Below, one piece after another: positions 2,783 through 18,739 of a DNA stretch of 54,174 bases. The DNA is from an uncultured Thioclava sp. (lineage in GTDB: Bacteria; Pseudomonadota; Alphaproteobacteria; Rhodobacterales; Rhodobacteraceae), in assembly GCF_913064665.1 (NCBI RefSeq), contig NZ_CAJYBT010000022.1, positions 1 to 54,174 on the forward strand. Reading direction: 5' to 3'. The notes beneath the pieces are model-generated. The model had not been told where the DNA came from. It saw nothing but the letters and a program-made list of their open reading frames with translations, and did no database searches. How positions within the stretch are numbered: position 1 is the first letter of the stretch; each line of letters opens with the position of its first letter. The position numbers were made by a program, and so were the translations under genes.

Positions 2783-3418
2783 ATGATGACCCGCTTCCTA
2801 CCTGGCATTCTTGCCATGGCCATTATCGTTGTGGCCTCCAATATTCTCGTGCAATTCCTCGTCGGCGATTGGCTGACCTGGGGCGCGTTCACTTATCCCT
2901 TCGCCTTTCTCGTCAATGACGTGATGAACCGCGTCTACGGGCCCGCCGCCGCGCGCCGTGTGGTGTTTGCCGGTTTCGTCGCCGGCGTGGCCTGCTCGCT
3001 CATCGGCTCTCAGATCATGCTGCAAGGCGATGGCTACACCTACCCCGCAGTGACCTTGCGCATCGCGCTGGGCTCGGGCGCGGCCTTCCTTGTGGCGCAA
3101 CTGACCGACGTGTTCATCTTTGACAAACTGCGCAACGGGGTGTGGTGGCGCGCGCCTGCGGTGTCCACGCTAATCGGGGCCTCGCTCGATACGATGATCT
3201 TCTTCTCGATCGCGTTTTCGGCCACGCTGACCTTCATCGAGCCGTCCAATGACGTGTCTTGGGCGGGGGCGCATCTGCCGCTTCTGGGGCTTGGCCCGGA
3301 AGTGCCGCTTTGGGTGTCGCTCGCTTGCGCCGATTGGCTTGTAAAACTTGCCCTGACTTTAATCGCACTGCTGCCTTTCAAGGCACTTGTCACAAAACTT
3401 TCTCCACGGATTGCGTAA
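2783..3418 (+). CDS. yhhQ: Queuosine precursor transporter (YhhQ/VUT family)
   Basis: An integral membrane protein of 211 residues that imports queuosine precursors (preQ0/preQ1) for tRNA modification. The call rests on the family pattern: SNILVQFLVGDWLTWGAFTY, then FLVNDVMNRVYGPAAARRVV after the first membrane spans, AQLTDVFIFDKLR in the middle and six hydrophobic segments in all. Two consecutive ATGs (2783 and 2786) are possible starts; the longer upstream frame begins inside the previous gene and lacks family features. The Shine-Dalgarno is weak. The gene ends 50 nt before the structured small transcript at 3470. Confident on family. Confidence 0.9.
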   Translation: MMTRFLPGILAMAIIVVASNILVQFLVGDWLTWGAFTYPFAFLVNDVMNRVYGPAAARRVVFAGFVAGVACSLIGSQIMLQGDGYTYPAVTLRIALGSGAAFLVAQLTDVFIFDKLRNGVWWRAPAVSTLIGASLDTMIFFSIAFSATLTFIEPSNDVSWAGAHLPLLGLGPEVPLWVSLACADWLVKLALTLIALLPFKALVTKLSPRIA

Positions 3419-3425
3419 AAAAACT

Positions 3426-3448
3426 TGTCACACACAAAATATGTGGCA
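3426..3448 (+). promoter_or_regulatory. Near-palindrome TGTCACA-N9-TGTGGCA upstream of the small transcript
   Basis: Two 7-nt arms (3426-3432 and 3442-3448) form an inverted repeat with one mismatch, inside an AT-rich stretch just after yhhQ. It lies about 20-40 nt upstream of the small reading frame at 3470/3488, where an operator or promoter element would be expected. A clear -35/-10 pair could not be fixed. Low confidence. Confidence 0.3.
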
Positions 3449-3487
3449 GGCTGTGGATAACGGCAACGCATGAAAGGAGGTGGTCCA

Positions 3488-3544
3488 GTGTCTAGAGTGA
3501 TAGTGGAGAGAGGTGTCGGGACAGTGAGGGGGGCCGTGGCCTGA
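3488..3544 (+). CDS. 18-residue reading frame after a perfect extended Shine-Dalgarno
   Basis: GTG start at 3488, stop TGA at 3542-3544, product MSRVIVERGVGTVRGAVA. GGAGG (3476-3480) sits 7 nt before the GTG, ideal spacing; an in-frame ATG at 3470 would give 24 residues (MKGGGPV...) but would place the Shine-Dalgarno inside the coding sequence. The peptide is rich in Val, Arg and Gly, with no signal or membrane segment. The unusually long complementarity to 16S rRNA and the downstream sequence that can mask it suggest a regulated leader peptide or small protein. I do not recognise a family; comparison with related genomes would show whether the codons are conserved at synonymous sites. Confidence 0.5.
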   Translation: MSRVIVERGVGTVRGAVA

Positions 3545-3627
3545 GGGCAAACCCTGGGGCAAAAGAACCCTGACTGGGACGGCTGGATCCTTCGGACCCT
3601 AACCGGACCATCTCCGTAGATCTCGGA

Positions 3628-3655
3628 GGGCCGTCTCACATCGAGACGGCCCTTT
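3628..3655 (+). terminator. Rho-independent terminator of the small transcript
   Basis: A perfect 10-bp stem GGGCCGTCTC (3628-3637) and GAGACGGCCC (3643-3652) with loop ACATC, followed by TTT. A second hairpin CTCCG-N7-CGGAG abuts it on the 5' side. It lies 113 nt before xseB and separates the small transcript from the isoprenoid operon. Confidence 0.75.
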
Positions 3656-3767: not shown

Positions 3768-4016
3768 ATGAGCGATGAACAGCCCGACGTAAAAACCCTC
3801 AGCTTCGAGCAGGCGATGAAGGCCCTCGAAGACGTTGTCAGCCAGTTGGAACATGGCGATGTGGCGCTGGATCGCTCGATTGCGCTGTATGAACGCGGTG
3901 CCGAGCTGAAAGCGCGCTGTGCCAAGCTGCTCAAAGAGGCTGAGGAACGGGTCGAAAAAATCACCCTTGGCGCCGATGGCGCGCCGCAGGGCACGACCCC
4001 GGTCGACGGGCTGTAA
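3768..4016 (+). CDS. xseB: Exodeoxyribonuclease VII small subunit
   Basis: An 82-residue acidic helical protein that binds the large subunit XseA to form exonuclease VII, a single-strand-specific nuclease. The pattern SFEQAMKALEDVVSQLEHGDVALDRSIALYERG is typical of the family (residues about 12-44), followed by CAKLLKEAEERVEKI. ATG 3768 is preceded by AAGGAG at 3755-3760, so the longer upstream frame is rejected. The stop codon is directly followed by the ispA start codon at 4017. Clustering of xseB with ispA and dxs is common in proteobacteria. xseA is not in the window. Confidence 0.95.
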   Translation: MSDEQPDVKTLSFEQAMKALEDVVSQLEHGDVALDRSIALYERGAELKARCAKLLKEAEERVEKITLGADGAPQGTTPVDGL

Positions 4017-17065: not shown

Positions 17066-18330
17066 GCGGGGATCACGGCGAAACTGGCGTTCAGTTGGTC
17101 GATCAGAAAATCGACATCTTGGCGCGAAAAAACCAAGGGTGGGCGGATTTTCAGGATGTGCTGGGCGCGCCCGACACGGCCCATCAGGACATGGCGGTTG
17201 CGCATTGCCTCGACGATCTGCCCGGCCTCATGGCTGGCGGGTTGCCCCTCGCGCGCCAGTTCAATCGCGGCGAACAGACCAAGACCGCGCGTGTCCGCAA
17301 TCAGCGGGTGATCAAGGCTTTGCAGTCCCTGCAGCAGATAGCCCCCGATTTCGGCGGCGTTTTGTTGTAGCCCTTCATCGTCGATCACCTGCAGCACCGC
17401 CATTGCCGCAGCACAGGACACCGGATTGCCGCCAAAGGTGTTGAAATAGCCAAAGGCCTCGCGGAAGGCGGCCATCACTTCGGGTCGCGCGACCACGCCA
17501 GCCACCGGGTGACCATTGCCCATCGGCTTGCCCAAGGTGGCCACATCGGGCGCAAACCCCAGCCAGTCATGGCCCCAGAAATGGCTGCCGATGCGTCCGA
17601 AACCGGGCTGGACCTCATCGGAGATGATCAAGCCACCCGCCGCGCGGATCACCGCGACGGTTGGATCGAGGAAACCGGGGGCGACGCCGGGCATCCCCTC
17701 ATTGGCGAAAATCGGACAGAGCATGAATCCGGCGAAGCCATGCCCTGAGGCTTCTAGCTCGGCGATGGCTTGCGCGACATTGGCGGCGAAGGCTTGCGGC
17801 TGCGCGTCCGGACTGCCCCCGAGCGGCGCAAGGCTGTCGGGTGCAGGCACCCGGCGGATGTGATCGGGCCAGCCCCCGATTGGCGGACGCCGGGTGGAGA
17901 GATGCGCGACCGCCGTGGTGTTGCCGTGATAGGTGTTGTCGGTGGCGATAAAGCCGCGCTTGCCGGTCGCCGCTTGGGCCATGCGCAGCGCCACGTCATT
18001 GGCCTCCGATCCGGTGCAGGTCATCAACAGCTGATCCAACCCGTGATCCAGCCGCGCCACCAAGGCTTCGCCGTAATCGAGAATTCCCTCGTGGAGATAG
18101 CGCGTGTGGGTGTTGAGCGTCGCGGCCTGATCGGCAATTGCGCGCACCACGCGCGGGTGGCAATGCCCGACATGGGCGACGTTGTTATAGGCGTCGAGAT
18201 AGCGCTGCCCGTTTGCGTCCCACAGATAGGCGCCCGCGCCGCGCGTGATATGCACGGGCTGCTCATAGAAGGTCGGCACATTGGGGCCTAGCAAGCGCGC
18301 GCGCCGGGCGATCAGGTCATTCTCCATCAT
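17062..18330 (-). CDS. Class III aminotransferase-fold PLP enzyme (phospho-lyase-like, AGXT2L group)
   Basis: A PLP-dependent enzyme of about 422 residues. Visible motifs are the substrate region AYNNVAHVGHCHPRVV, the PLP phosphate loop TGSEANDVALRMA, IISDEVQPGFGRIGSHFWGH with the Asp that binds the pyridine N, and the lysine motif TLGKPMGNGHPVAGV. The sequence resembles the AGXT2L1/AGXT2L2 subgroup, whose members are not aminotransferases but lyases that eliminate phosphate from O-phosphoethanolamine or 5-phosphohydroxylysine. The upstream neighbour arfB overlaps by 14 nt, and the downstream kinase gene overlaps by 4 nt and could supply the phosphorylated substrate. An ordinary omega-transaminase remains possible. 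Confidence 0.82.
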   Translation of the reverse strand: MMENDLIARRARLLGPNVPTFYEQPVHITRGAGAYLWDANGQRYLDAYNNVAHVGHCHPRVVRAIADQAATLNTHTRYLHEGILDYGEALVARLDHGLDQLLMTCTGSEANDVALRMAQAATGKRGFIATDNTYHGNTTAVAHLSTRRPPIGGWPDHIRRVPAPDSLAPLGGSPDAQPQAFAANVAQAIAELEASGHGFAGFMLCPIFANEGMPGVAPGFLDPTVAVIRAAGGLIISDEVQPGFGRIGSHFWGHDWLGFAPDVATLGKPMGNGHPVAGVVARPEVMAAFREAFGYFNTFGGNPVSCAAAMAVLQVIDDEGLQQNAAEIGGYLLQGLQSLDHPLIADTRGLGLFAAIELAREGQPASHEAGQIVEAMRNRHVLMGRVGRAQHILKIRPPLVFSRQDVDFLIDQLNASFAVIPA

Positions 18331-18739
18331 CTACCTTCCCGCGCATCGCCTTGACCTCACCGCGGATGGTTTTCGCCTTGAGACGGCGGCGTTGACTGCC
18401 TTTGGTGGGCTTGGTGGCGATCCGGCGCTTGGGCCGCTCGCAAGCTTTGCGGATCAACTCGGCCAGCCGCTCACGCGCGATCTCGCGGTTGCGGGCCTGA
18501 GATCGCGTGTCTTGAACCTGCAACAGCAGCGCGCCCTCCAGCGTCCATTTGCGCCCCGCAAGACGTTTGAGGCGCGATTTGACGGCGGGGGGAAGATTGG
18601 GCGACCGCTCGGCCTCAAAGCGCAATTCGACGGCGGTTGAGACCTTGTTCACATTCTGCCCACCCGGCCCTTGGGCGCGGGTAAAGCTCTCGACAAGCTC
18701 CCAATCCTCGATGGTGATTTGATCGTTTATTCGCAACAT
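18317..18739 (-). CDS. arfB: Alternative ribosome-rescue peptidyl-tRNA hydrolase ArfB
   Basis: A 140-residue release-factor-like protein (YaeJ) that frees ribosomes stalled on mRNAs without a stop codon. The GGQ motif is in GPGGQNVNKVSTAVELRF, with GGQ at residues 26-28. The C-terminus is a basic tail (RLKAKTIRGEVKAMRGK) that would enter the empty mRNA channel, and no codon-recognition domain is present. It is the first gene of a minus-strand run into the PLP enzyme and kinase, with 14 nt overlap. Confidence 0.93.
   Translation of the reverse strand: MLRINDQITIEDWELVESFTRAQGPGGQNVNKVSTAVELRFEAERSPNLPPAVKSRLKRLAGRKWTLEGALLLQVQDTRSQARNREIARERLAELIRKACERPKRRIATKPTKGSQRRRLKAKTIRGEVKAMRGKVDDGE

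What the first reader, a model, noticed from the sequence alone, without database searches (positions are those of the whole stretch)
3473..3655. Small transcript whose ribosome-binding site mimics, and is masked by, 16S rRNA tail sequences
Seen: AAAGGAGGTGGTCCAG (3473-3488) can pair with the 16S 3' end (known sequence GGCUGGAUCACCUCCUUU) at 16 successive positions with one G-U, far beyond an ordinary Shine-Dalgarno. Downstream, GGACCATCTCC (3605-3615) matches the 16S tail GGATCACCTCC at 9 of 11 positions and can pair with the same Shine-Dalgarno at all 11 (one G-U). GGCTGGATCCTT (3581-3592) also resembles the tail. An 18-codon frame begins 7 nt after GGAGG and a strong terminator closes the unit. 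Inference: a self-masked leader peptide or small mRNA that may respond to free 30S subunits or ribosome occupancy, or act as a sponge for the anti-Shine-Dalgarno.
Basis: partly seen in the sequence, partly recalled or inferred. Interest (0 to 1): 0.8.

Follow-up and report, generated by a model that had tools for sequence, protein, structure and literature searches.

The report
Self-closing small messenger RNA, alphaproteobacteria
The window holds a small free-standing gene whose RNA carries an unusually complete docking site for the ribosome, a conserved 18-codon reading frame, and a 3' stretch that can fold back over the docking site; relatives show that both the frame and the fold are kept by evolution, but what the RNA does is not known.

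Summary
AAAGGAGGTGGTCCAG (3473-3488) with its neighbours pairs with the 16S tail over 18 nt. GGACCATCTCC (3605-3615) pairs with the Shine-Dalgarno at 11 of 11 positions (8 of 20,000 shuffles). Comparison shows a conserved, free-standing unit, a diverged relative of Rfam RF01867 (CC2171, an uncharacterised Caulobacter sRNA), with a positioned promoter, extended Shine-Dalgarno, an ORF of usually 18 codons, a CARN-loop hairpin and a terminator. In 77 aligned Rhodobacteraceae-type sequences the 7-bp Shine-Dalgarno/CCUCC core pairs in 531 of 539 cells, and an adjacent long-range helix has compensatory changes. In other alphaproteobacterial families that arm is not enriched; instead the ORF start pairs with the segment before the terminator (34 of 60 with at least 8 bp; swapped partners 8.7 on average). 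Frame 0 first stops after 14-40 codons in 98% and 96% of the two groups (39-41% in shuffles), while peptides differ between families. Conclusion: a self-closing small mRNA whose translation start is gated by long-range pairing. Ribosome-occupancy sensing and anti-SD sponging are untested. The second mimic, GGCTGGATCCTT, is not conserved.

The parts
3425..3430 (+). -35-like hexamer TTGTCA of the unit's own promoter
   Evidence: In 95 de-duplicated Rhodobacteraceae-type sequences a TTGACA-like hexamer (5 or 6 of 6) occurs in 76 (18.5 expected from shuffles); 55 are exact (1.1 expected); 74 of the 76 start 47 to 52 nt before AAAGG. -10 and start point (about 3458-3464) inferred.
3472..3489 (+). 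Extended Shine-Dalgarno, 18-nt complement of the 16S 3' tail with one G-U; core GGAGGTG 3476-3482
   Evidence: GGAGGTG kept in 30 of 30 relatives found without the pattern
3488..3544 (+). 18-codon ORF (GTG start, TGA stop), peptide VSRVIVERGVGTVRGAVA
   Evidence: 18 codons in 93 of 97 de-duplicated Rhodobacteraceae-type loci; synonymous excess in codons 2-12 only
3484..3507 (+). Local hairpin TCCA (3484-3487) / TGGA (3504-3507) with the start codon in its loop
   Evidence: RNAalifold consensus; 100% of cells paired but almost invariant, so weak support; TGGAGA was part of the fetching pattern for many rows
3516..3519 (+). 5' strand TCGG of long-range helix P2 (partner 3603-3606)
   Evidence: 95.1% of cells paired, 4 of 4 pairs with changes on both sides
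3545..3554 (+). Small hairpin GGG-CAAA-CCC just after the stop codon (CARN loop)
   Evidence: 96.5% of cells paired in 77 sequences, 2 of 3 pairs with changes on both sides
3603..3606 (+). 3' strand CCGG of helix P2
3605..3615 (+). Anti-Shine-Dalgarno arm GGACCATCTCC; the conserved core CCATCTCC is 3608-3615
3625..3655 (+). Intrinsic terminator stem-loop GGAGGGCCGTCTC-acatc-GAGACGGCCCTTT
   Evidence: 98.4% of cells paired, 8 of 10 pairs with changes on both sides; the generic scan did not list it
3458..3654 (+). Whole RNA element (covariance model R1 match; the Rfam CC2171 match is 3464-3652)
   Evidence: the window is a training sequence of R1
2786..3418 (+). yhhQ, queuosine precursor transporter, upstream neighbour
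   Evidence: NCBIfam TIGR00697 over cut-off; upstream in 109 of 112 loci with room
3768..4016 (+). xseB, exodeoxyribonuclease VII small subunit, downstream neighbour

Best explanation
This is a free-standing small mRNA of about 190 nt, a diverged relative of the Rfam family CC2171. Shown by sequence comparison: its own positioned promoter, an extended Shine-Dalgarno, a short ORF whose length is kept, and a terminator. Also shown: conserved long-range pairing of the 5' start region with the segment before the terminator. Inferred: while the RNA is being made, the Shine-Dalgarno is open and 30S subunits load; once the 3' arm (CCAUCUCC) emerges, it closes over the Shine-Dalgarno, with helix P2 beside it, and initiation stops. 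A bound or translating ribosome would keep it open. The ORF therefore works through being translated, or as a poorly constrained peptide, and the open or closed state is the regulated quantity. What reads that state (peptide, exposed CCUCC arm, RNA stability, or read-through into arfB where arfB follows) is not known. My guess is that exposed or hidden RNA, not the peptide, is the output.
For: Element found by pattern in 238 of 292 genomes of the order (reversed-pattern control: 1); model R1 finds 38 more of the 54 missed at 99 bits or above, and in the 30 of these that became loci GGAGGTG and an M/V/L-S/I start are present in 30, 18 codons in 24, a CRCCTCY arm in 29. Frame 0 reaches its first stop after 14-40 codons in 98% of 97 Rhodobacteraceae-type and 96% of 71 other-family loci, versus 39-41% in shuffles; 93 of 97 have exactly 18 codons. 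SD/CCUCC core: 531 of 539 cells pair; RNAalifold chose this helix unprompted; P2 has 12 cells with changes on both sides, shuffles 1.8. Predicted SD opening: 0.002 full length, 0.458 without the 3' arm (medians, 80 sequences). Swap test: SD arm z -4.6 in Rhodobacteraceae-type loci; ORF start z -12.2 elsewhere. Promoter position.
Against: No transcript, footprint or structure probing was available. The SD arm hardly varies, so two-sided change in that helix rests on one position: 9 cells, shuffles 6.0; 42 of 77 do not pair there. In other families the SD arm is not enriched (21 of 62, 17.1 expected); there predicted SD opening is 0.387 full length and 0.278 without the 3' segment, and codons 1-6 hardly change (0.416 to 0.453). 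The start codon is predicted paired with or without the arm (0.035, 0.031). One of 30 relatives read (L307) lacks the usual arm.
Confidence: 0.7

Rival explanations
1. A trans-acting RNA that docks on 30S subunits through the whole free 16S tail and so titrates or senses free 30S (sponge or sensor); the ORF is only part of the docking.
For: The complement covers the free tail (its limits recalled); the base after ATCC is mixed (A, G, T or C) in 71 other-family loci, so conservation drops where the tail complement ends; nearly always one match per genome.
Against: ORF length is conserved, so it is probably translated, not only docked. In 29 of the 30 pattern-missed relatives read, the stretch after GGAGGTG no longer reads ATC while GGAGGTG and the ORF stay. 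One copy per genome would need very high expression. Conservation counts lean on a pattern that allowed only 2 mismatches.
Confidence: 0.2
2. A leader or attenuator for arfB (ribosome rescue), with read-through of the terminator set by ribosome occupancy of the ORF.
For: arfB lies within 400 nt downstream in 69 of 109 loci with room; the median gap from terminator stem to arfB start is 39 nt in 68 (range -93 to 203, the negative end from mis-called terminators), leaving little space for another promoter.
Against: 12 of 109 have arfB further off and 28 have none in the fetched DNA. In the window xseB follows and arfB lies 15 kb away on the other strand. In the other-family loci searched, arfB and yhhQ gave no hit (flanks of about 0.4-1.5 kb), and by a crude ORF caller the nearest downstream ORF is on the other strand in 13 of 28.
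Confidence: 0.15
3. A plain small-protein gene whose peptide is the product.
For: Codons 2-12: 60 of 136 single changes synonymous in frame 0, versus 24 of 147 and 32 of 144 in the other frames.
Against: Codons 13-18 show no such excess (43 of 174 versus 65 of 186 and 53 of 183); peptides differ between families; long-range RNA pairing covaries.
Confidence: 0.2
4. A type I toxin mRNA kept inert by 5'-3' pairing (hok or AapA kind).
For: Same masking layout as AapA3 (PMC6733600, passages read).
Against: Near-universal, nearly always single-copy gene in the order, no hydrophobic peptide by eye, peptide not conserved between families; antisense RNA not searched.
Confidence: 0.04

Closest known systems
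Rfam RF01867 CC2171 (Caulobacter sRNA, no described function found)
   Same: Same 5' block GAAAGGAGGUGRUCCAGUGUCU, similar length, same kind of terminator arm; the only CC2171 match in the own genome is this locus (E 2.4e-6, 38.1 bits).
   Different: Below the gathering score (75). 0 of 20 Rhodobacteraceae-type loci reach it, 7 of 20 other-family loci do. In the window the closing pairing uses the Shine-Dalgarno with CCUCC instead of CAUUGUC with GACAAUG. Rfam types it as an sRNA gene; no ORF is mentioned in what I saw of it.
AapA type I toxin mRNAs of Helicobacter (PMC6733600, passages read)
   Same: Full-length RNA closed by a 5'-3' long-distance pairing in which a 3' anti-SD covers the SD.
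   Different: No toxin-like peptide by eye, no known antitoxin, conservation across much of a class.
Leader-peptide attenuators such as rnTrpL of Sinorhizobium (PMC10117765, passages read)
   Same: Short RNA with a short ORF, terminator, possible dual function.
   Different: No constant downstream gene, extended Shine-Dalgarno instead of a leaderless start.

Membership tests
Rfam RF01867 CC2171 | Covariance-model score at or above the gathering score (75 bits) | tested here: not met
   38.1 bits
Rfam RF01867 CC2171 | Full-length match well above chance and best in its genome | tested here: met
   Model positions 1-159, E 1e-6 in 381 bases; E 2.4e-6 in the genome, only match
Rfam RF01867 CC2171 | Closing helix of CAUUGUC with GACAAUG before the terminator | tested here: not met
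   Absent in the window; replaced by SD/CCUCC pairing
Rfam RF01867 CC2171 | Linked to accepted members by intermediates | tested here: inconclusive
   CC2171 matches at E <= 0.001 in 26 of 142 class genomes, 5 over the cut-off; 24 of the 28 places overlap places found by the 20-base pattern; no tree was made
Transcription attenuator | Constant regulated gene downstream | tested here: not met
Type I toxin mRNA | Small hydrophobic toxic peptide with antisense RNA | not tested
   Peptide judged by eye only; antisense RNA and toxicity not examined
Anti-SD sponge | Binds 30S in excess and changes global initiation | not testable with these tools
   needs experiments

The most novel reading that the evidence does not exclude
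A class-wide RNA that reads out 30S availability: the free 16S tail and the RNA's own 3' CCUCC arm compete for the same Shine-Dalgarno, so the RNA switches between a ribosome-held open form and a self-closed form, and the freed arm or the read-through into arfB carries the signal.
Probability: 0.25. Interest if true: 0.88.

Novelty: new variant of a known kind. Interest (0 to 1): 0.62.

Why it matters
An RNA family filed as an sRNA of unknown function appears to be a translated, self-closing small mRNA kept across much of a bacterial class. If the gating works as inferred, it offers a natural competition between the 16S tail and an internal copy of its sequence, which makes it testable whether cells measure free 30S subunits with RNA. 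In many Rhodobacteraceae it sits just upstream of a ribosome-rescue gene.

Tried and rejected
GGCTGGATCCTT as a second 16S mimic: rejected, in a stretch gapped in most relatives. Local CTCCG/CGGAG hairpin beside the arm as an antiterminator: set aside by eye, because many relatives read CGAAG there. A second long-range helix of codons 1-9 with the pre-terminator segment in Rhodobacteraceae-type loci: not supported (swap test z -1.1). SD masking in other families: not enriched (21 of 62, 17.1 expected). CARN hairpin as a class-wide motif: clear in Rhodobacteraceae-type loci (87 of 97 with 3 or more pairs, 14.4 expected), weaker elsewhere (24 of 71, 10 expected). Element on plasmids or phages: no match. 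Generic promoter and terminator scan: nothing found. Matching the unit to published Paracoccus sRNAs (PMC5107571, section 15 and passages read): not possible without genome coordinates. Two Caulobacter ncRNAs are reported as translated (PMC4117421, passages read), but they are named in a dataset that I could not read. Literature: CC2171 with sRNA gave 2 papers, RF01867 gave 2, and CC2171 anywhere in a word gave 17, of which by title only those 2 concern the RNA; no functional study seen. Further searches: (listings only, apart from passages of papers named in this report).

Conservation inside those letters is therefore partly by selection; stop position, 3' arm, P2 and terminator were not selected. 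My group 'Rhodobacteraceae-type' is defined by how loci were fetched (L001-L060 and L120-L238 without L028), not by checked taxonomy; it holds some unnamed bins and L162, titled Pararhizobium. Dropped rows: 32 of 285 loci had no element start (29 are chance sites in the own genome, L061-L089; L024 has a deletion in the motif, L029 and L241 are contig-end pieces). Of 160 usable Rhodobacteraceae-type loci 80 were kept after de-duplication, and I gave 77 of these to the alignment, leaving out L027, L122 and L162 by choice, without a test. L001, L060 and L316 are the window itself. R1 was trained on A1, which includes the window. One search read the wrong strand for part of its 30 loci; one search is the corrected reading.

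Full report
Observation. The letters and coordinates of the finding are right. 3473-3488 pairs with the 16S tail at 16 of 16 positions with one G-U; with neighbours the run is 18 nt, the longest in the window on either strand. GGACCATCTCC pairs with the Shine-Dalgarno (SD) at 11 of 11 positions, is unique on the + strand of the window, and occurs in 8 of 20,000 single-base shuffles. The RNA folds better than shuffles (z -4.1). The third element, GGCTGGATCCTT, lies where most relatives have a gap.

Kinship. Rfam gives no match at the gathering score in the window, but a full-length sub-threshold match to RF01867 CC2171 (38.1 bits, gathering 75, E 1e-6). Searching the family over 142 class genomes gives matches at E <= 0.001 in 26, with 5 over the cut-off; the window's locus is the only match in its own genome; of 14 control genomes only Caulobacter vibrioides rings. 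By my comparison of coordinates, 24 of the 28 places listed overlap places found by the pattern. Among 20 chosen other-family loci 7 pass the cut-off, among 20 chosen Rhodobacteraceae-type loci none. I therefore call it a diverged relative and not a formal member. The genus is probably Thioclava: a named T. dalianensis contig has the same length (102,594) as that of a same-genus genome.

Spread. A 20-base pattern (SD, start codon, two more bases; up to 2 mismatches) matches in 238 of 292 genomes of the order (reversed-pattern control 1), 80 of 337 of the class (control 0) and 37 of 200 of a phylum draw (control 1); by my count of that table 33 of 51 lie inside the class and 4 of 149 outside, all four with 2 mismatches. 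The 238 were not each read. Of the 54 order genomes missed by the pattern, the model R1 finds a match in 48, 38 of them at 99 bits or more. Thirty of these became loci. Read on the right strand, 30 of 30 keep GGAGGTG and an ORF starting M/V/L-S/I; 24 have 18 codons, 3 have 25 and 3 have 13; 29 have a CRCCTCY arm (not L307); but the start codon lies 13-15 nt after the first A of AAAGG and only one (L297) still reads GATC after GGT. So the core SD, arm and ORF are kept more widely than the long complement of the 16S tail. R1 alone finds 19 of 115 class genomes. Plasmids and phages: no match.

Own transcription unit. A TTGACA-like hexamer (5 or 6 of 6) occurs before the SD in 76 of 95 Rhodobacteraceae-type sequences (18.5 expected), 74 of them starting 47-52 nt before AAAGG; 55 are exact against 1.1 in shuffles; in other families the signal is weak (21 of 70; 10 expected). 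A terminator was assigned in all 253 loci by a permissive script, with stems typically starting about 140 nt after the SD; some calls picked a later or a wrong hairpin. Over L120-L238, yhhQ is upstream in 109 of 112 loci with room; arfB is within 400 nt downstream in 69 of 109, further off in 12 and not found in 28. Gene names: NCBIfam for YhhQ, XseB and ArfB. In other families neighbours differ; by a crude ORF caller the nearest downstream ORF is on the other strand in 13 of 28, and no arfB or yhhQ was hit. So the unit is not the leader of one fixed gene.

The ORF. Counted over loci with duplicates, 170 of 177 have exactly 18 codons; de-duplicated, 93 of 97. In 71 other-family loci 48 have 22-26 codons and 68 fall in 14-40. 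Shuffles give 39-41% in 14-40, and in frames 1 and 2 about half of the loci meet a stop before codon 14. All three stop codons are used among 136 distinct 18-codon ORFs (57 TGA, 49 TAG, 30 TAA). Single changes between nearest neighbours are synonymous in 60 of 136 cases in codons 2-12 (frame controls 24 of 147 and 32 of 144), but in codons 13-18 in 43 of 174 (65 of 186 and 53 of 183). Peptides differ between families. So translation and ORF length appear to be under selection; the peptide is so only in part, within a family.

The fold in Rhodobacteraceae-type loci. On 77 aligned sequences RNAalifold, without guidance, chose GGAGGTG with CAYCTCC, a start-codon hairpin, TCGG with CYGR, and the terminator. 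For the structure with the small CARN hairpin and an eighth SD pair added by me, 96.2% of cells pair (slid controls at most 57.7%), and 103 cells have changes on both sides (shuffles 27.5). The SD core pairs in 531 of 539 cells; variation in the arm is mostly C/U opposite G and A/G opposite U. Because transitions keep such pairs anyway, I rate this as moderate. P2 has real compensation: 4 of 4 pairs, 12 cells against 1.8 in shuffles, for example CAA with TTG in place of CGG with CCG in L033, L049 and L190. At SD position 8, over 106 distinct sequences, the arm has G only where the SD has C (12 of 19 with C; 0 of 87 with another base); of 33 with G, 32 face C; but 45 of 51 with A do not pair there. 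The C cases probably come from few lineages (no tree made). Predicted SD opening falls from 0.458 without the arm to 0.002 with it (medians of 80); the start codon is predicted paired either way.

The fold elsewhere. In 60 de-duplicated other-family sequences codons 1-9 pair with the segment before the terminator far better than swapped partners do (-17.7 against -12.7 kcal/mol, z -12.2); a contiguous helix of 8 or more pairs occurs in 34 of 60 against 8.7 on average (maximum 17 in 1,000 permutations). Examples: CATTGTC with GACAATG, CATGGTT with GACCATG, TATATCGA with TCGATATA. Masking of the SD itself is not enriched there (21 of 62, 17.1 expected; Rhodobacteraceae-type 91 of 95, 41.9 expected); predicted SD opening is 0.387 full length and 0.278 without the 3' segment, and that of codons 1-6 hardly changes. 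So the pairing is well supported there, its effect on initiation is not.

Interpretation. Shown by comparison: a conserved free-standing unit, a short ORF with conserved length, and a long-range closing pair between start region and pre-terminator segment, with different registers in different families. Inferred: closure blocks initiation on finished RNA, and ribosomes compete with it. Unknown: the output. The closest working parallel is the AapA toxin mRNA, whose full-length form is inert through a 5'-3' pairing that covers the SD (PMC6733600, passages); nothing here speaks for a toxin. Sensing of free 30S, a sponge, and control of arfB stay possible and are given as rivals.

Print record. 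In the held library, CC2171 turned up in two relevant papers only, a Mesorhizobium prediction table and the Rfam 15 paper (passages read). A Caulobacter profiling study states that two earlier predicted ncRNAs are translated, without names in the passages seen (PMC4117421). The original Caulobacter sRNA paper (Landt et al. 2008) is recalled and was not read.

Noticed in passing
window 18326-18739 (-): The genome's arfB (ribosome rescue) lies on the same contig, 15 kb from the element and on the other strand; in many relatives it is directly downstream of the element.
   Followed up: partly
window 3425-3448: The promoter spacer holds a dyad (TGACA..TGTCA or TGCCA..TGGCA in relatives; imperfect in the window), seen by eye; perhaps an operator.
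   Followed up: no
L273, L274: One other-family genome (G048) carries two copies of the element with different ORFs (24 and 18 codons).
   Followed up: no
L117, L252, L256, L265, L277 (other families): A hairpin with a CARC loop sits near the end of the ORF in different reading frames (EQPS-like or SNLF-like codons), so it looks like an RNA motif and not a peptide motif.
   Followed up: partly
L267: In this other-family genome the bacterial small SRP RNA (RF00169) lies beside the element.
   Followed up: no
L162: A record titled Pararhizobium sp. carries a Rhodobacteraceae-like element (MSKAILEIEVRKIGGNGI); it may be a mislabelled bin or a true relative.
   Followed up: no
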